DNA from: a virus
Reading direction: 5' to 3' (one strand)
Virus record (IMG/VR): IMGVR_UViG_3300038701_000547
Span: 1-34,056 of that record
Length of the DNA: 34,056 nucleotides
The notes beneath the pieces were generated by a model. It was not told the DNA's origin and did no database searches. It worked only from the letters and a program-made list of their open reading frames with translations. The position numbers were made by a program, and so were the translations under genes. Of the stretch, positions 462 to 25,986 are shown piece after piece (position 1 is the stretch's first letter; the number at the start of each line of letters is the position of its first letter).

Positions 462-1972
462 CACGCGGAGAGAGGGTATGCGCTTTCGTCGAGAAGCTGT
501 GTCCCGTGCCTGAGGGCAAGCTGGTCGGGCAGTCCATGAAGCTGATGGAATTTCAGCGGCGCTTTATCCTCGACATTTACGACAACCCGAAGGGGACCAG
601 CCGAGCATATCTGTCTGTCGCACGGAAGAACGGGAAGTCGGCGCTCATCGCTGGCATCTTGCTTGCACACATCGTCGGTCCGGAGGCGCGGCAGAACAGC
701 CAGATCATCAGCGGGGCGCGAAGCCGGGACCAGGCGGCTCTGGTGTTCAAGCTGGCCGAGAAGATGGTGCGACTGTCGCCTGTTCTGTCGAAGGTCATCA
801 AGGTTGTTCCGTCTCAGAAGTCCCTGATCGGCTTGCCCATGAATGTTGAATACAAGGCCATCAGCGCCGAAGCTGGCACGGCACACGGCTTGTCGCCAGT
901 GCTGGCTATCCTCGACGAGGTGGGCCAGGTGCGAGGACCGACCGACGCTTTCGTGGAGGCTATCGAGACAGCGCAGGGCGCGCACGACGATCCTCTGTTG
1001 ATCGCGATCAGCACGCAGGCGGCAACGGACGGTGATCTGTTCTCGATCTGGCTGGATGACGCGAAGAATGCGAAGGACCCTCGGATTGTCTCGCACGTCT
1101 ACACCGCGCCCGAGGACTGCGAGGTGCTGGACAAGTCAGCGTGGAAGGCGGCGAACCCGGCGCTGGGTCACTTCCGATCGATGGCGGACATGGAAGACTT
1201 CGCAAAGCAGGCGGCGCGCCTCCCGGCGAAGGAGGCCAGTTTCCGGTGGCTGTATCTCAATCAGAGGGTCGAGGGCACGACGCCCTTCCTGAACCGGACC
1301 GAGTGGGAAGCCAACGGTGCCGATCCTGAGATCGAGGCGGGCGCGCTCTGCTATGCTGGCCTCGACCTTTCAGCGAGCCGCGACCTGACTGCCTTCGTGA
1401 TGGTCTTCCCCAGCGAGGACGGATACCACGTCGTGCCGCAGTTCTTCCTGCCTGCGGATGGCATCCGGGAGAGGGCGAAGGCCGAGAAGGTGCCTTATGA
1501 CCTCTGGGCGGATCAGGGGTTCCTGACGCTGATTGACGGCCCGGTGATCGTCCCTGCCATTGTGGCGCGGCATGTGGCCGAGGCTGCGGAGCGATACAGC
1601 TTGCAGATGGTCGCCTATGACCGCTGGCGCATTCACGACTTCCAGCGAGAGCTGGATATGATCGGCGCGAACGTCCCGATGGCCCCGTTCGGTCAGGGCT
1701 TCAAGGACATGGCCCCGGCGGTGGACAAGCTGGAGCGGCTGGTGGCCGAGCGCAAGCTGCGGCATGGCAGCAACCCGCTGCTCAACATGTGCGCAGCGAA
1801 CGCGGTGATTGAGCGCGACCCGGCTGGCAACCGCAAGCTGACGAAAGCGAAGTCTGTCGGCAAGATCGACGGCCTTGTGGCCTTGGCGATGGCCCTCGGT
1901 GCGGAGGCGAGCGACGATGCCCCGCCTGCGGCGTCTCCGTGGGATGACCCGGACTTCCGGCTCGCGATGTGA
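458..1972 (+). CDS. terL: Terminase large subunit
   Basis: ATPase/nuclease that cuts concatemeric DNA and pumps it into the prohead. The 504-aa protein has a Walker A-like motif near residues 54-61 (VARKNGKS), a Walker B near 148-154 (VLAILDE) and a C-terminal RNase H-type nuclease half beginning at the acidic strand YAGLDLSASRD. Length and order fit the HK97/YmfN-type large terminases. GTG at 458 is used, overlapping the small subunit stop in a GTGA junction, typical of translational coupling. The C-terminus has a conserved late helix with KIDGLVALAMALG, also usual for the family. Confidence 0.95.
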   Translation: MTRGERVCAFVEKLCPVPEGKLVGQSMKLMEFQRRFILDIYDNPKGTSRAYLSVARKNGKSALIAGILLAHIVGPEARQNSQIISGARSRDQAALVFKLAEKMVRLSPVLSKVIKVVPSQKSLIGLPMNVEYKAISAEAGTAHGLSPVLAILDEVGQVRGPTDAFVEAIETAQGAHDDPLLIAISTQAATDGDLFSIWLDDAKNAKDPRIVSHVYTAPEDCEVLDKSAWKAANPALGHFRSMADMEDFAKQAARLPAKEASFRWLYLNQRVEGTTPFLNRTEWEANGADPEIEAGALCYAGLDLSASRDLTAFVMVFPSEDGYHVVPQFFLPADGIRERAKAEKVPYDLWADQGFLTLIDGPVIVPAIVARHVAEAAERYSLQMVAYDRWRIHDFQRELDMIGANVPMAPFGQGFKDMAPAVDKLERLVAERKLRHGSNPLLNMCAANAVIERDPAGNRKLTKAKSVGKIDGLVALAMALGAEASDDAPPAASPWDDPDFRLAM

Positions 1973-2156
1973 TGTGTCGCGCGAAAAATACTGTTTCAGA
2001 AAAATAGGGCTTGCAGAAAAGCTGTGTTGGTGTTTTTGTGTTCGGGCGGATGGAGGCTGCAACCTCAGACATCCGCCCTAACCAACCGGGATGCACGGTT
2101 GATCTGCCGCATGGTGTAGCAGGTGACGTGCGTCCGCAAGTCAAGGATGCAACATC
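1973..2156. other. Intergenic region with long hairpin
   Basis: A 184-nt gap after the large terminase. The first 65 nt are A/T-richer than the surroundings and contain the near-repeats TTTCAGAAAA and TTGCAGAAAA. These are followed by a perfect hairpin at 2044-2078. A weak promoter (TTGCAG 2011-2016, 17-nt spacer, TTTTGT) is possible but poor at -10. AAGGA about 10 nt before ATG 2157 is the likely ribosome binding site. Confidence 0.4.
2044..2078 (+). promoter_or_regulatory. Two-stage perfect hairpin
   Basis: Outer arms GGGCGGATG (2044-2052) and CATCCGCCC (2070-2078) are perfectly complementary. An inner stem GAGG/CCTC closes a CTGCAA loop. No T-run follows on either strand, so it is not a standard intrinsic terminator. 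It could be an RNA processing or stability element between terminase and the next gene. Confidence 0.55.
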
Positions 2157-2915
2157 ATGGCCGTGAAAAAGGCAGAAGCCGGAACACTCCACATCGATGC
2201 TCTGAAGCAGGGGCGGGTCACGTTGAAGCTGATCGGCACAACGCCCTTCTATTTCAACGCGATGAGCGCGAAGGCGAAGCGCTCCCTCCTGATCGGCGGG
2301 GGCAAGAAGACCGCAGCCGAAAAGAAGGAACTGAAGCACGATCCCGAGGTTGAGTTTCGGGACAGTGTCTATCGGCTCCCCGGCGGACCGACCTTGCTCG
2401 GATTTCCCGCTCCCGGCGTGAAGGGCGCGATGGCGACTGCTGCGCTGGAGACTCCCGGCGTGACCAAGTCCAGCGTTCAGCGACTGATCTTCCTGCCGGA
2501 ACAGAAGATCAAGATGTGGGGCAAGCCTATGCTTAAGATGGACGTGGTTCGGTCGGCTGACATGAATAAGACGCCAGACATTCGGACGCGGGCTTTTCTC
2601 CCGCGCTGGTGCGCAGAGGTGGACATCGCCTTCGTCCAACCGACGCTTTCGGTGCACTCGATTGTCTCTCTGCTCAGCAACGCCGGTGTGATCGTCGGGA
2701 TCGGGGACTTCCGTCAGGAGAAGGGGCGCGGGTCATATGGCACCTTCGCAGTCTCTGGCGACGATCTCGGCGATTGGCAGGGCTACTGGGATGAAGTGAC
2801 GGCAGAGGGACGTGACGTTCAGCAGGCGGCGCTGGATGATCCTGAGTTCGCAGATGACGAGACCATCGAGTTGATGGAGCTTCTTGAGGAAGAGCGCGCG
2901 CGGCGGGCTGCGTGA
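2157..2915 (+). CDS. Phage protein with RAMP/Cas7-like sequence features
   Basis: 252 aa, function unknown. Three parts resemble RAMP (Cas7/Csm3-type RNA-binding) proteins: an N-terminal strand TLKLIGTTPF near residues 22-31; a central GFPAPGVKGAMATAAL near residue 82, like the IPGSSLKGALR motif; and a C-terminal glycine-rich loop GIGDFRQEKGRGSYGTFAV near 181-199. The last ~40 residues are acidic and helical. The gene sits alone between the terminase and portal operons and just upstream of a GGCNN repeat array. The RAMP reading is by eye; a phage structural or decoration protein with chance similarity is the alternative. Confidence 0.5.
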   Translation: MAVKKAEAGTLHIDALKQGRVTLKLIGTTPFYFNAMSAKAKRSLLIGGGKKTAAEKKELKHDPEVEFRDSVYRLPGGPTLLGFPAPGVKGAMATAALETPGVTKSSVQRLIFLPEQKIKMWGKPMLKMDVVRSADMNKTPDIRTRAFLPRWCAEVDIAFVQPTLSVHSIVSLLSNAGVIVGIGDFRQEKGRGSYGTFAVSGDDLGDWQGYWDEVTAEGRDVQQAALDDPEFADDETIELMELLEEERARRAA

Positions 2916-2950
2916 TGGAATTGGCGGGGGCGGCTTCGGTCGCCCCACGC

Positions 2951-3172
2951 GGTCAAGGTGAGGCGGTCGTGGTCCGGGATGGACTGGTCAGGCACGGCAC
3001 GGCGCGGCCTGGCAAGGCGGTCAAGGCACGGCAAGGCGTGGCGCGGCAAGGCGTGGCCTGGCAAGGCGGTCATGGCGGTCGGGGCGGGGCGGGGCAGGGC
3101 CGGGCAAGGCAAGGCCGGGCATGGCATGGCGAGGCGGTCGTGTCGTGTTCTGGATTGGCGCGGCAAGTCTAG
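2951..3172. repeat. GGCNN pentamer array A
   Basis: After the shared head GGTCAAGGTGAGGCGGTC (2951-2968) come about 23 exact GGCNN pentamers in strict 5-nt register (GGCAC, GGCGC, GGCAA, GGCGT, GGCAT and others). They are broken only by nonamers GGCGGTCAA, GGCGGTCAT and GGCGGTCGG. The period of 5 is not coding, and predicted frames across it are low complexity. It lies between the RAMP-like gene and the 164-aa gene. Function unknown. Confidence 0.85.
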
Positions 3173-3205
3173 CGTTCACCATCAACTGAAACGAAAGGAA
3201 GCAGA

Positions 3206-3700
3206 ATGAGTTTCAAAGCGAAAGATCGGCAGCGGATCATTGACGCCTATCTGGCCGAGACCGGGCGCAACATGTTCGTCGCGCCTGAGTTTGTGGACTG
3301 GCTTGCCGGTCAGCCTGACCATGAGATGTATGAGGCATTTTATGGGATGAGCGACACCGAGGCGGCAAGGCAGCACCGGATCGGGCTGGCGAGAAGGATG
3401 GCATCTGGCCTGCGGATCGTGGCGAAACAGGAGACGGTCGAGGCGAGTGTGGTTCAGATCACGACGCGGGAATATCCGGCTTTTGTCTCGCCTATGTCGG
3501 CACGCAAGGCAGGCGGCGGGTATCAGCCGGTGGACCCGTCCGACGTGGATCAGATGGCCGAGTTGCGGCGGCAGGGCGCGTCCGCTCTCCGGGGATGGCT
3601 GTCGCGCTATCGTGGCGTGTTTGAGGCCGCTGGCGTTGATCTGTCGGCGATCGAACAAATCGCGTCGTCTGAGGACGGCAGCGTGGCGCAAACCGCTTGA
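3206..3700 (+). CDS. Conserved phage hypothetical protein (164 aa) between repeat arrays
   Basis: Unrecognised function. The protein is mostly helical and soluble, with no transmembrane segment. Its N-terminus RQRIIDAYLAETGRNMFVAPEFVDWLAGQPDHE looks like a small globular domain. The second half is a helical bundle around ALRGWLSRYRGVFEAAGVDL. ATG 3206 follows GAAAGGAAGC. The gene has normal GC-rich coding character, unlike its flanks: array A ends about 35 nt upstream and array B begins about 12 nt downstream, so gene plus array look like a cassette. A DNA-binding or regulatory role is possible but not shown. Confidence 0.7.
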   Translation: MSFKAKDRQRIIDAYLAETGRNMFVAPEFVDWLAGQPDHEMYEAFYGMSDTEAARQHRIGLARRMASGLRIVAKQETVEASVVQITTREYPAFVSPMSARKAGGGYQPVDPSDVDQMAELRRQGASALRGWLSRYRGVFEAAGVDLSAIEQIASSEDGSVAQTA

Positions 3701-3711
3701 GCGGTAGCGCT

Positions 3712-4017
3712 GGTCAAGGTGAGGCGGTCATGGCGCGGTCTGGCGGGGCGGGGCGGGGCGAGGCTGGGCGGTCGTGGCCCGGAATGATTTGGCACGGCAC
3801 GGCACGGTCAGGCATGGCCCGGCGGTCGTGGTAGGGTTTGGAGCGTCTAGGCAAGGCTCGGAAAGGCGGTCAAGGCGCGGCAGGGCGTGGCGAGGTCTGG
3901 CATGGCGGTCGGGGCATGGCGTGGCGAGATCAGGCGTGGCATGGCACGGCATGGCACGGTGAGGCGGTCATGGCCCGGCGTGGCGGGGCAAGGCAAGGCT
4001 GGGCGAGGCGGTCTTAG
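3712..4017. repeat. GGCNN pentamer array B
   Basis: It starts with the same GGTCAAGGTGAGGCGGTC head (3712-3729) 12 nt after a stop codon. It continues as GGCNN pentamers with a few variants (GGTCT, GGTCA, GATCA, GGTGA) that still keep the 5-nt register, punctuated by GGCGGTCAT, GGCGGTCGT, GGCGGTCAA and GGCGGTCGG nonamers. It ends at GGCGGTCTT near 4008-4016. This fills most of the 394-nt gene-free stretch 3701-4094; the remainder holds the portal promoter. Confidence 0.85.
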
Positions 4018-4034
4018 CTGAAATGTGCAAAGCC

Positions 4035-4063
4035 TTCACATTCTAGCGGTCATGGGTTATATT
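4035..4063 (+). promoter_or_regulatory. Sigma70-like promoter for the head operon
   Basis: TTCACA (4035-4040), a 17-nt spacer and TATATT (4058-4063) each match the sigma70 consensus at 5 of 6 bases. The predicted start near 4070 gives a short leader to ATG 4095. The spacer contains AGCGGTCATGGG, a near copy of the nonamer that punctuates the adjacent array. Confidence 0.65.
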
Positions 4064-4094
4064 CCGCGCAAACCATGCGCGTGGACCTGACCTG

Positions 4095-5327
4095 ATGGGC
4101 ATCTTCGACCGTCTCCGCAAGCCGGAGGCCCGCAATCTCGAAAACCCCAGTGCGCCCGTTTCAGCGGAGGACTTCCTGCAAGTTATGGGCTGGGGCGGCG
4201 GTATGTCCGAATCCGGCATCAACGTCACCATCGACGCTGCGCTTGGCGTCCCGGCGATCTGGTCGGCGGTCAACTTCCTGAGCGGCACCTTGGCTGGCCT
4301 TCCCCTGCACGTCTACCGGAAGACCAAGGACGGGCGCGAGCGGGTCGAGACCGGCAACCTTCCCCGCATCCTTCACGACATCGCAAACGACGAGATGTCG
4401 TCCTTCGAGTGGCGGAAGTATCTGTTTGATCAGGTGTTCACCGGCGGGCGCTGCGTCTCCTACATCGAGCGCAACGGCGGGGGTCAGGTGGTCAACATCT
4501 GGCCGCTTGATCCGCATCACACGCGGGTGGATCACGTCTATCAGGACCGGAAGCTGGTCAAGGTCTACACCTACCGGGGCCAGAAGTATTCCGCGAACGA
4601 GGTGATCGACATCACGTTCATGCTCAAGGCCAATGGCCTCGACATCCGTGGTCCGATCATGACGAACAAGGACGCCATCGGGCTTGCCATCGCGGCGACC
4701 AAGTACGGGTCCAAGGCGTTCCAGTCTGGCGGCATCCCTCCGATGACGCTTCAAGGTCCGTTCCAGTCCGGTGCCGCTGCGTCTCGCGCATCAACCGACG
4801 TGGCGAACACCACGCTTAAGCTGGCGCGCGAGGGCAAGCCGGTTATGGCGATCCCGATGGGTCACGAACTGAAGCCGGTCGGGTTCTCCCCGGACAAGAT
4901 GCAGCTTCTGGAGCTTCAGCGGTTCAGCATCGAGCAGGTCGCCCGCATCTACAGCCTGCCCCCGATCTTCTTGCAGGACCTGTCGAAGGGCACCTACTCG
5001 AACACGGAACAGCAAGACCTTCACTTCGTGAAACACACGCTCAAGCGGTGGATCGAGCAGTTCGAGCACGAGTTGAACCTGAAGCTGTTCCCGCGCGGCA
5101 GCAAGAACTACGTCGAGTTCAACGTGGATGGTCTCCTGCGAGGCGACTTCAAGACCCGGATGGAAGCGCACGCGGCATCTATCCAGAACGGCATTCGGAC
5201 CCCGAACGAGGTGCGGGACATCGAGAACCTGCAACCGCGTCCCGAGGGCGACCGGCTTATGATCCAGGGCGCGACTGTCCCGATTGCAATGCAAATGGAG
5301 CTTCCGCTAGATGCCGGTTCCAACTGA
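4095..5327 (+). CDS. Portal protein (HK97 family)
   Basis: Forms the dodecameric portal ring through which DNA enters the head. The 410-aa length is typical for HK97-type portals. The N-terminal part has LGVPAIWSAVNFLSGTLAGLPLHVY. The family signature lies near residues 288-330, with PPIFL followed by GTYSNTEQQDLHFVKHTLKRW. The C-terminus has the usual R-T-P-NEVRDIENLQP segment. ATG 4095 has only a weak Shine-Dalgarno. The 3' end overlaps the protease gene by 17 nt. Confidence 0.95.
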   Translation: MGIFDRLRKPEARNLENPSAPVSAEDFLQVMGWGGGMSESGINVTIDAALGVPAIWSAVNFLSGTLAGLPLHVYRKTKDGRERVETGNLPRILHDIANDEMSSFEWRKYLFDQVFTGGRCVSYIERNGGGQVVNIWPLDPHHTRVDHVYQDRKLVKVYTYRGQKYSANEVIDITFMLKANGLDIRGPIMTNKDAIGLAIAATKYGSKAFQSGGIPPMTLQGPFQSGAAASRASTDVANTTLKLAREGKPVMAIPMGHELKPVGFSPDKMQLLELQRFSIEQVARIYSLPPIFLQDLSKGTYSNTEQQDLHFVKHTLKRWIEQFEHELNLKLFPRGSKNYVEFNVDGLLRGDFKTRMEAHAASIQNGIRTPNEVRDIENLQPRPEGDRLMIQGATVPIAMQMELPLDAGSN

Positions 5328-24448: not shown

Positions 24449-25060
24449 CTAGTATGGTATTTGGTCTCCATCGAGATCGTTGTTCGCTGGCTTGCTCATG
24501 CGCTCTTTGGCTGCGTCCTTGGCGGAGATCACGTCTGCGCTGGCCTGCACCGGCTTTGGAATTCGCCCCCAGCGCTCTTTCAGGTCGTCCAAGCTGTCGG
24601 CTTCTGAGAGATATTTCTTGGCCCGCTCAATCGCCTCTGCGTCGGTTTCCTGCGGCTTCTGCTGGCGCTGTTCCTGATTCGGAGGTGCCTTTGCCGCCGC
24701 GTTCCCGTCATCGTCTTCAGGAGCGATGCCAGCCATCGCCATTAGCCCGTATCTCCGAGCATAGGTCACTGCTGACCCATAGCCCTGCATGTCGTTCTTC
24801 GAGACGATCAGCGGAACCCGGCAGGTGAGGCTTTCGCCGCTCTCACCGTGGATCAGTATCGTCTCGACATAACGCCCGTGCTCGTCCTCTCCGGTAGGCT
24901 GAATCAATGCGATGCCAGCTTCATTGAGCGCAGGAAGGCAGGCGTCCATGACGTTCCCCAGATCGGCATACTTGCTGCGGAAGTGAGGGTTGCTGGCCTG
25001 CTTGAGCGCCTTGCCCATGTTGGCCTGCGCTTTTGCCAATGCTGTTGCGATACCCTTCAT
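24449..25060 (-). CDS. erf: ERF-family ssDNA annealing protein
   Basis: 203 aa. The core of P22 Erf-type recombinases is visible: KALKQASNPHFRSKYADLGNVMDACLPALNEAGIALIQ, and YGSAVTYARRYGLMAMAGIAPEDDDGN. The linker is Gln-rich, followed by a small C-terminal helical domain ending in DLDGDQIPY, whose acidic tip resembles an SSB-like tail. It promotes annealing and circularisation or recombination of phage DNA. GGAGGGG lies 7 nt upstream of ATG 25060. Confidence 0.93.
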   Translation of the reverse strand: MKGIATALAKAQANMGKALKQASNPHFRSKYADLGNVMDACLPALNEAGIALIQPTGEDEHGRYVETILIHGESGESLTCRVPLIVSKNDMQGYGSAVTYARRYGLMAMAGIAPEDDDGNAAAKAPPNQEQRQQKPQETDAEAIERAKKYLSEADSLDDLKERWGRIPKPVQASADVISAKDAAKERMSKPANNDLDGDQIPY

Positions 25061-25061
25061 C

Positions 25062-25715
25062 TCAAAACCCCTCCTTCAGCATCTTGCGGAGCTGCTGCTC
25101 CTGCGCTTCCCCTGCGGCGGCCCGTGTGGCGGCCCGTGTGGCGGTCCATGCGGAGGCCCATGCGGCGGCCCATGCGGCGGCCCGTGTGGCGGTCCATGCG
25201 GAGGCCCATGCGGCGGCCCATGCGGCGGCCCGTGTGGCGGCCCGTGTGGCGGCCCGTGTGGCGGCCCATGCGGCGGCCTCTGCGGCGGCCTCTGCGGCGT
25301 CCCGTGCGGCCTCTGCGGCGTCCCATGCGGCCTCTGCGGCTTCTGCGGCTTCTGCGGCGGCCTCTGCGGCGGCCCGTGCGGCGGCCCGCTCGTCAGGCGT
25401 TGCGGCGTCGTTCCGCAGCATGGCGATCTGATCGCGGATGCGTTTGTCGTTGGGGTATTGTGCCTCGTAGAGGTGCATCACTTGTTCTGCGCACCACGCC
25501 TGAAAATGGCGGGACAGGCGGTCGTGATCGGGTTGCATTGCGTGGGACAGCACCCACAGGGCGTCGTCCAGCCCGTTGCTGTTGAGGATGGCCATGAGCG
25601 GAAGAGGCTCGTCGTCGGCCTTGGTCTTGCCAAGGTGTGCTAGCAGTTTTTCCCAGCCATCCTTGCAAGGGGACGCCCTGCGGATGCGGGCAAGTGTCGT
25701 GGTGTAGGTGGTCAT
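25062..25715 (-). CDS. Ala-rich repeat phage protein (Imm5-like)
   Basis: 217 aa from ATG 25715. N-terminal LLAHLGKTKADDEPLPLMAILNSNGLDDALWVLSHAMQPDHDRLSRHFQAWCAEQVMHLYEAQYPNDK is a conserved phage module; similar sequences with Ala-rich tails have been called Imm5-like. Then ERAAARAAAEAAAEAAEAAEAAW and many A-A-x-A tetrads with W, R, T or S at the variable place, forming a long helix. DNA here is a 12-bp satellite. Function unknown; an immunity role is not shown. Confidence 0.7.
   Translation of the reverse strand: MTTYTTTLARIRRASPCKDGWEKLLAHLGKTKADDEPLPLMAILNSNGLDDALWVLSHAMQPDHDRLSRHFQAWCAEQVMHLYEAQYPNDKRIRDQIAMLRNDAATPDERAAARAAAEAAAEAAEAAEAAWDAAEAARDAAEAAAEAAAWAATRAATRAATRAAAWAAAWASAWTATRAAAWAAAWASAWTATRAATRAAAGEAQEQQLRKMLKEGF
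25114..25390. repeat. 12-bp tandem repeat within a coding region
   Basis: Roughly 23 units of consensus GCGGCCCRTGYG with variants GCGGTCCATGCG, GAGGCCCATGCG, GCGGCCTCTGCG. A 48-bp block (25129-25176) is exactly repeated at 25177-25224, which points to recent slippage. In frame on the minus strand each unit encodes a tetrapeptide such as AAWA or ATRA. Confidence 0.9.
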
Positions 25716-25813
25716 CAGAAGCCCACCCCGTGGCCGAGCACCAGCATCGCGTAGCCGGTCCCGAAGATGCACACGACCCCGAGGAAATCGCAGATGATGT
25801 CTTTGATGTTCAT
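25715..25813 (-). CDS. 32-aa single-span membrane protein
   Basis: Reads MNIKDIICDFLGVVCIFGTG, then YAMLVLGHGVGF. One transmembrane segment, ending just after a Gly-rich turn. Start overlaps the upstream 58-aa gene stop (ATGA) and the stop overlaps the start of the Ala-rich gene. GGGAAG precedes the ATG. Small membrane proteins like this recur in early operons of alphaproteobacterial phages; role unknown. Confidence 0.65.
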   Translation of the reverse strand: MNIKDIICDFLGVVCIFGTGYAMLVLGHGVGF

Positions 25814-25986
25814 GGTTCTTCCCTTTTCTTAATCTCGTATCCGAGCGCATCGGCGAGGTCGTTCATGGCTTCGTGCGCATTCTGAAGATGGAAATCGCGG
25901 CGACTGCCTTCTTCGGTCCAGTAGACCAGCAGCATGTTTTTAGCGATTTCTTCGGCATAGATGCGAGCGAGGATTGCTTTGCTCAT
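25810..25986 (-). CDS. Small hypothetical protein (58 aa)
   Basis: Begins MSKAILARIYAEEIAKNMLL, continues VYWTEEGSRRDFHLQNAHEA and ends MNDLADALGYEIKKREEP. Helical then short beta. No known motif. Start overlaps the zinc-finger gene stop by 4 nt (ATGA) and the end overlaps the next gene by 4 nt. Confidence 0.65.
   Translation of the reverse strand: MSKAILARIYAEEIAKNMLLVYWTEEGSRRDFHLQNAHEAMNDLADALGYEIKKREEP

What the first reader, a model, noticed from the sequence alone, without database searches (positions are those of the whole stretch)
2157..2915. Stand-alone RAMP/Cas7-like candidate beside the repeat arrays
The protein has an N-terminal strand, a GFPAPGVKGAM segment and a C-terminal glycine-rich loop in the order seen in Cas7/Csm3-type RAMPs, with no other cas gene in the genome. 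If the fold is right, a phage-encoded RNA-binding protein sits directly upstream of a long GC-rich repeat transcript, which might be its ligand. The link between gene and repeat is inference only.
Basis: inference. Interest (0 to 1): 0.75.

Follow-up and report, generated by a model that had tools for sequence, protein, structure and literature searches.

The report
Phage-encoded VIPR guide-RNA interference system
This phage carries a small CRISPR-like protein next to a string of ten compact guide sequences, and one guide spells out, with every third letter skipped, a conserved gene of rival phages, so it is very probably an RNA-guided weapon of one virus against others (a VIPR system, a kind first described in 2026).

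Summary
The finding is real. The ORF at 2157-2912 (+) is a RAMP-fold protein: an AlphaFold model (pLDDT 83.5) matches Csm3/Cas7 proteins, and it belongs to PHROG family phrog_4652, which also holds the Vipr protein of phage SUSP1. The adjoining repeats (2952-3169 and 3703-4009) are not simple GC-rich repeats. They read in frame as G(G/T)Y-NN pentamers, cut into ten guide units by a one-base slip (GGC-G-GTC). This is the guide-RNA format of VIPR (Viral Interference Programmable Repeat; bioRxiv 2026.04.26.720920). Under the one-nucleotide-skip rule, the window guide at 3908-3965 matches the Sak4-like recombinase gene of 52 other viral contigs, 37 of them at 22/22 bases. Guides of sister phages match terminase, prohead protease or vipr genes perfectly, including the window's own terminase. 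Other skip lengths and shuffled guides give no perfect match. The cassette (structured vipr leader, vipr, array 1, accessory ORF, array 2) sits between terminase and portal; sister phages lack it. It is a new member of a very recently described kind, not type II. RNA binding and repression were not tested.

The parts
2157..2915 (+). vipr: stand-alone RAMP-fold protein, 252 aa (RAMP domain about 15-203, C-terminal helical extension 204-251)
   Evidence: phrog_4652, AlphaFold model, Foldseek/VIA matches to Csm3/Cas7.
2966..3018 (+). guide unit U1, 10 NN: GT-CC-AT-CT-CA-AC-AC-GC-CT-AA
   Evidence: unit parser; one weak database match, out of codon phase.
3020..3067 (+). guide unit U2, 9 NN: AA-AC-AA-GT-GC-AA-GT-CT-AA
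   Evidence: five unrelated matches, no clear target.
3078..3135 (+). guide unit U3, 11 NN: GG-GG-GG-AG-CG-AA-AA-CG-AT-AT-GA
   Evidence: no target found.
3137..3169 (+). last, degenerate unit U4 of array 1 (6 NN)
   Evidence: the segment is partly conserved in L016, so it could be an array terminus rather than a guide.
3206..3700 (+). accessory gene (vap candidate), 164 aa, phrog_15946
   Evidence: homologues found in 113 of the held loci; same PHROG next to vipr in Gordonia/Mycobacterium phages and fused to it in phage Gorge; model; no confident fold match.
3727..3769 (+). guide unit U5, 8 NN: AT-GC-CT-GG-GG-GG-GA-TG
   Evidence: best self match (4 of 16 mismatched) is in codon phase in the window's own terminase at 1889.
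3771..3823 (+). guide unit U6, 10 NN: GT-CC-AT-TT-AC-AC-AC-CA-AT-CC
   Evidence: last nine NN match 18/18 in the YPIFTTTQIP motif of two capsid-like proteins, first NN mismatched.
3825..3867 (+). guide unit U7, 8 NN
   Evidence: no target known.
3869..3906 (+). guide unit U8, 7 NN
   Evidence: no target known.
3908..3965 (+). guide unit U9, 11 NN: GG-AT-GT-GA-CA-GT-AT-AC-AT-AC-GA; target is the Sak4-like recombinase gene of other phages
3967..4009 (+). guide unit U10, 8 NN
   Evidence: no target known.
2952..3169 (+). array 1 as a whole, units separated by the one-base slip GGC-G-GTC
3703..4009 (+). array 2 as a whole, with short conserved leader (GCGCTGGTCAAGGTGAGGC)
2044..2156 (+). structured vipr leader RNA: hairpin 2044-2078, ribosome-site hairpin 2129-2135/2145-2151, possible competing stem 2089-2097/2127-2135
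   Evidence: compensatory changes for the first two; the competing stem is possible but not supported by covariation.

Best explanation
This is a VIPR system: a phage-encoded, RNA-guided, probably DNA-binding interference cassette. SHOWN by sequence: a RAMP-fold Vipr protein; same-strand arrays of G(G/T)Y-NN repeats split into ten units by a one-base slip; a conserved accessory gene between the arrays; and guide units whose NN letters, read with one skipped base between pairs, match genes of competing phages at codon positions 1 and 2. INFERRED: the arrays are transcribed with vipr and vap and give guide RNAs. Vipr subunits coat a guide, each holding one GGY and presenting the next NN. The complex pairs with one strand of the target gene with every third base skipped, and blocks its transcription, hitting packaging, head-maturation, recombination or vipr genes of rival phages in the same host. 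Skipping the wobble base means synonymous changes there do not let the target escape.
For: Fold and family. Arrays: (123 of 130 loci, 182 chains on the gene's strand, none on the other strand of 1.2 Mb; SUSP1 guide RNAs recovered as a positive control). Skip rule: of 510 guides of 8 or more NN, 9 reach >=94% identity with a 1-base skip (7 perfect, up to 22/22), against 0, 1 and 0 for skips of 0, 2 and 3 and 0 for shuffled guides. The perfect targets are terminase (three guides), prohead protease (two), vipr (one) and one other ORF, all with the skipped base at the wobble position; guide ends coincide with the slips. Window guide U9: its 18-base core matches 52 contigs, all in one motif (IVDQVITMT) of a Sak4-like ATPase; the four held-out flanking bases also match in 37. 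In 179 genomes of the Pararhodobacter family U9 finds 16 with the 1-base skip (1-2 mismatches) and 0 with skips of 0 or 2 or with the reversed control. The window has no Sak4 homologue and carries an ERF gene instead. Published mechanism: PMC13142463.
Against: No expression, RNA-binding or repression data for this family. Only one of ten window guides has a firmly identified target; U1, U2, U3 and U6 gave few or no matches. Pairwise identity to SUSP1 Vipr is confined to the G-loop region (31% over 49 aa). Units have 6-11 NN and no separate 3' tail is visible between them, unlike SUSP1 guide RNAs. Guides were pooled from related phages, so hits of near-identical guides (for example L102/L104) are not fully independent.
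Confidence: 0.95

Rival explanations
1. The guide RNAs act on messenger RNA of rival phages (antisense silencing or RNA cleavage, like type III CRISPR Csm), not on DNA.
For: The closest solved folds are RNA-targeting type III and type VII RAMPs.
Against: Six of seven perfect guides, and U9, have the same sense as the target gene, so a guide transcribed in the GGY orientation cannot pair with that mRNA. SUSP1 VIPR binds double-stranded DNA (PMC13142463). Csm3's catalytic aspartate was not examined here.
Confidence: 0.04
2. The repeats are an unrelated GC-rich element (REP-like, packaging or protein-binding sites) and the RAMP gene is only a neighbour.
For: The arrays lie beside the terminase and portal genes, where packaging signals can lie.
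Against: Same arrays beside vipr homologues in quite different genome positions, such as early regions of Gordonia and Mycobacterium phages. None of the 80 terminase-selected loci (L130 onward) carries an array. Hypervariable NN letters match rival genes under one specific rule.
Confidence: 0.01
3. A lone Cas7 left over from a degraded type III CRISPR locus.
For: Csm3-like fold.
Against: Gene-array-accessory order is conserved across many phages, no CRISPR repeats or other cas genes were found, and the closest family is phrog_4652 with SUSP1 Vipr.
Confidence: 0.01
4. A virion decoration or head protein, given its place in the head gene block.
For: Position between terminase and portal.
Against: No capsid match by profile or fold; sister phages lack the cassette and go straight from terminase to portal; homologues lie in early regions of other phages.
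Confidence: 0.005

Closest known systems
VIPR system of Escherichia phage SUSP1 (type II; Vipr structure PDB 36pp; PMC13142463)
   Same: Vipr in the same PHROG (phrog_4652); same-strand GGY/NN guide RNAs in the gaps around vipr; a small accessory gene next to vipr; targets read with a one-base skip at the wobble position; targets are competing mobile elements including other VIPRs.
   Different: Accessory gene of another family (phrog_15946 here, phrog_5926 in SUSP1). Guides packed in two continuous arrays delimited only by a one-base slip (GGC-G-GTC), not separate RNAs each with a tail. First triplet of a unit is GTC. Vipr carries a ~50 aa C-terminal helical extension. The cassette sits between terminase and portal.
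VIPR-like loci of Gordonia phages UmaThurman and Ecliptus and Mycobacterium phages Donkeykong and Gorge (annotated as hypothetical proteins)
   Same: Same Vipr PHROG, same accessory PHROG (phrog_15946), continuous arrays with a one-base slip (GGC-A-GGC).
   Different: Only about 30% Vipr identity; lie in the early/immunity region or beside tail genes; in Gorge vipr and vap are fused.
Csm3/Cas7 RAMPs of type III and type VII CRISPR
   Same: RAMP fold with glycine-rich loop; Z 9 to 9.8 over about 140-155 residues.
   Different: No CRISPR array, no Cas10 or other cas genes found, guide has a pentamer code, predicted target is DNA.

Membership tests
VIPR | Phage-encoded RAMP-fold Vipr protein with G-loop | tested here: met
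VIPR | Adjacent tandem repeats of conserved GGY (or a related consensus) alternating with hypervariable NN | tested here: met
   entropy 0.08/0.80/0.97 bits for the triplet, 1.78/1.95 bits for NN over 95 repeats.
VIPR | NN letters specify targets with a one-nucleotide skip, skip mostly at codon wobble position | tested here: met
VIPR | Targets are competing mobile elements | tested here: met
   Terminase, prohead protease, vipr and Sak4-like genes of other phages.
VIPR | Accessory vap gene beside vipr | tested here: inconclusive
   A conserved adjacent gene (phrog_15946) exists in nearly all relatives; whether it is one of vap1-vap6 could not be checked, as the supplement is not readable here.
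VIPR | Guide RNA expressed and bound by Vipr; complex binds DNA and represses | not testable with these tools
   Needs small-RNA sequencing, pull-down, gel-shift and reporter assays.
VIPR type II (SUSP1 clade) | vap1 accessory protein | tested here: not met
   SUSP1 accessory is phrog_5926, window accessory is phrog_15946.
VIPR type II (SUSP1 clade) | Each guide followed by an invariable structured 3' tail | tested here: not met
   Units follow each other with one base between them; at most one terminal segment could be a tail.
CRISPR-Cas type III | Cas10 or other cas genes plus CRISPR repeat-spacer array | tested here: not met
   None found in the proteins scanned or in the repeat scans.

The most novel reading that the evidence does not exclude
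The family uses an array grammar not yet described: many guides in one continuous transcript, delimited only by a one-base phase slip (GGC-N-GKY) with no tail per guide, read by a Vipr with an extra C-terminal helical domain and a different accessory protein, with vipr translation controlled by a leader hairpin over its own ribosome site. AT-rich relatives keep the slip but replace GGY by GTT, so the scaffold letters themselves have been rewritten.
Probability: 0.35. Interest if true: 0.8.

Novelty: new member of a known kind. Interest (0 to 1): 0.7.

Why it matters
VIPR is known (in the library held here) from a single preprint with wet-lab work centred on SUSP1 and Pseudomonas fulva systems. 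This case shows independently, in phages of marine Rhodobacteraceae type and with a different accessory gene, that the one-base-skip code predicts real targets. It gives about 500 decoded guide units with several perfect natural targets (terminase, prohead protease, Sak4 recombinase, vipr itself), and a simple sign for guide ends (the slip). That makes phage-against-phage targeting, target choice and self-avoidance directly testable, and offers a compact multi-guide array for tool building.

Tried and rejected
Pfam, NCBIfam and PADLOC gave nothing useful for the protein. The Rfam scan of 1800-4200 gave no credible match. The U3 core found no target; U1 gave one match, one base off and out of codon phase, taken as chance; U2 gave five matches in unrelated proteins, not claimed. 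U1 gave 0 and U6 gave 3 two-mismatch matches in 179 genomes, judged chance. U6's two IMG/VR matches fall in the same capsid motif but miss the first NN, so they are only a lead. The competing stem in the vipr leader pairs in 93% of cells but shows no covariation above shuffles, so the switch idea is not claimed as shown. The vap structure model (pTM 0.47) found no fold match. The preprint's supplement, with its type definitions and its figure on staggered arrays, could not be opened, so the VIPR type is left open. Three genome searches failed for a wrong handle and were repeated.

Full report
THE OBSERVATION. The ORF 2157-2915 (+) encodes 252 aa. It has no Pfam or NCBIfam family but matches phrog_4652 (E 2.9e-14). 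Relatives are plentiful: 54 IMG/VR loci in a first scan and 423 candidates in a profile scan, plus 32 Gordonia and Mycobacterium phage records at about 30% identity. In an alignment of 21 members the glycine-rich loop G-x-G-D-x-R-x-x-K-G-x-G is invariant.

FOLD. An AlphaFold model from that alignment (mean pLDDT 83.5, pTM 0.78) matches CRISPR RAMP proteins. All 44 PDB hits at E <= 1e-3 are Csm3/Cas7-type chains or RAMP effectors, best E 3.7e-5, and the second aligner gives Z up to 9.8 over 138-157 residues with Csm and type VII Cas7 chains. In the viral library a phage protein annotated 'Cas system-associated RAMP superfamily' scores 3e-7. A profile search of PDB sequences returned the SUSP1 Vipr protein (36pp, E 4.5e-4). 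SUSP1 Vipr itself scores 1.4e-96 against the same PHROG.

WHAT VIPR IS. PMC13142463 describes Viral Interference Programmable Repeat systems: a phage RAMP protein plus guide RNAs of alternating GGY and NN, recognising double-stranded DNA with one skipped base between NN pairs, the skip falling at the wobble position, and targets mostly in competing phages.

THE ARRAYS. The repeats after the gene have exactly this form. Strict GGY tracts at period 5 occur eight times with 7-11 repeats, only on the + strand. A parser that allows slips reads both arrays end to end (2952-3169 and 3703-4009) as triplet-NN pentamers broken only by one-base slips, GGC-G-GTC. Over 95 repeats the triplet positions have 0.08, 0.80 and 0.97 bits of entropy and the NN positions 1.78 and 1.95; chain scores of 55.5 and 79 compare with a maximum of 11 in simulations. 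The same parser recovers the known SUSP1 guide RNAs and finds arrays in 123 of 130 loci, never on the opposite strand in 1.2 Mb. Gordonia and Mycobacterium phages use GGC-A-GGC as the slip, and AT-rich relatives use GTT in place of GGY with the same slip.

DECODING. I took 510 distinct units of at least 8 NN and searched 2.15 Mb of phage loci with arrays masked. With a one-base skip 9 units reach 94% identity and 7 are perfect; skips of 0, 2 and 3 give 0, 1 and 0, and shuffled units give 0. The perfect matches are in terminase large subunit (units of L091, L096, L104), prohead protease (L112 at 22/22, L115 at 20/20), vipr (L062) and one further ORF (L105), all with the skip at the wobble base. 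Matches start at the first NN after a slip and, in five of the seven, end at the last NN before the next slip, so the slips mark guide ends. Two of these units match the window's own terminase (positions 866 and 956). L062's own vipr region differs from its guide at 2 of 16 positions, as expected if self-hits are avoided.

THE WINDOW'S OWN GUIDE. The 18-base core of U9 (3908-3965) matches 52 IMG/VR contigs. All lie in frame in one motif, IVDQVITMT (preceded by ELPG in nearly all), of a Sak4-like AAA ATPase. The four bases left out of the search also match in 37 contigs, giving 22/22. In 179 genomes of the Pararhodobacter family U9 finds 16 with up to two mismatches, while skips of 0 and 2 and the reversed pattern find none. 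The window lacks a Sak4 homologue and carries an ERF gene, so the guide spares its owner. U6's last nine NN fit a capsid motif in two phages, a lead only. The other guides have no firm target.

MECHANISM. Shown: protein family, array grammar, code, target matches. Inferred: transcription, assembly and repression, by analogy with SUSP1. Because U9 and six of seven perfect guides have the sense of the target gene, an RNA in the GGY orientation cannot pair with the target mRNA, which favours DNA recognition.

CONTEXT. Order: terminase, structured leader, vipr, array 1, accessory gene (3206-3700, phrog_15946), array 2, portal. None of the 80 loci fetched by terminase similarity has an array, and in several of them terminase runs straight to portal, so the cassette is an insert. 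The accessory gene accompanies vipr widely and is fused to it in phage Gorge. It differs from SUSP1's accessory protein, so this is not type II; the exact type is open.

LEADER. 2044-2156 holds a hairpin with many compensatory changes and a second hairpin covering the vipr ribosome site (pairs 91.8% kept, 0 of 500 shuffles as high). It was found only in loci with vipr.

VERDICT. Confirmed and largely explained: a VIPR system, new member of a kind described in 2026.

Noticed in passing
window 2044-2156: Conserved structured RNA upstream of vipr in about 38 loci: a covarying hairpin and a second covarying hairpin over the ribosome-binding site, with a possible competing stem; looks like translational control of vipr.
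   Followed up: partly
L004 5803-7020 (Mycobacterium phage Gorge gp54): Vipr (phrog_4652) and the accessory protein (phrog_15946) are fused into one 405 aa protein, supporting a functional link.
   Followed up: partly
L045, L047 (7276-7559): AT-rich relatives have GTT-NN arrays instead of GGY-NN, with the same one-base slip (GGC-G-GTT).
   Followed up: partly
L062 8307: A guide unit that matches vipr genes of sister phages 16/16 while its own contig's best site, in vipr, has two mismatches: VIPR against VIPR.
   Followed up: yes
G008, G014, G026, G068, G156: Genomes of the Pararhodobacter family carry the U9 site with a shared single mismatch (ACN to GCN); could be a divergent host/prophage gene or an escape change.
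   Followed up: no
window 1973-4040: Sister phages without VIPR (L130, L131, L133-L135, L142) have terminase followed directly by portal, showing the empty site of a roughly 2 kb cassette.
   Followed up: partly
window 25062-25850 (-) and 24848-25585 (+): Alanine-rich repeat ORF (12-base tandem repeats 25109-25388) opposite an ORF with a PADLOC match to a type II nicking endonuclease (residues 88-154, E 4.8e-8).
   Followed up: no
window 4035-4063: Promoter-like site (TTCACA-17-TATATT) just after array 2, in front of portal; may restart late transcription after the insert.
   Followed up: no
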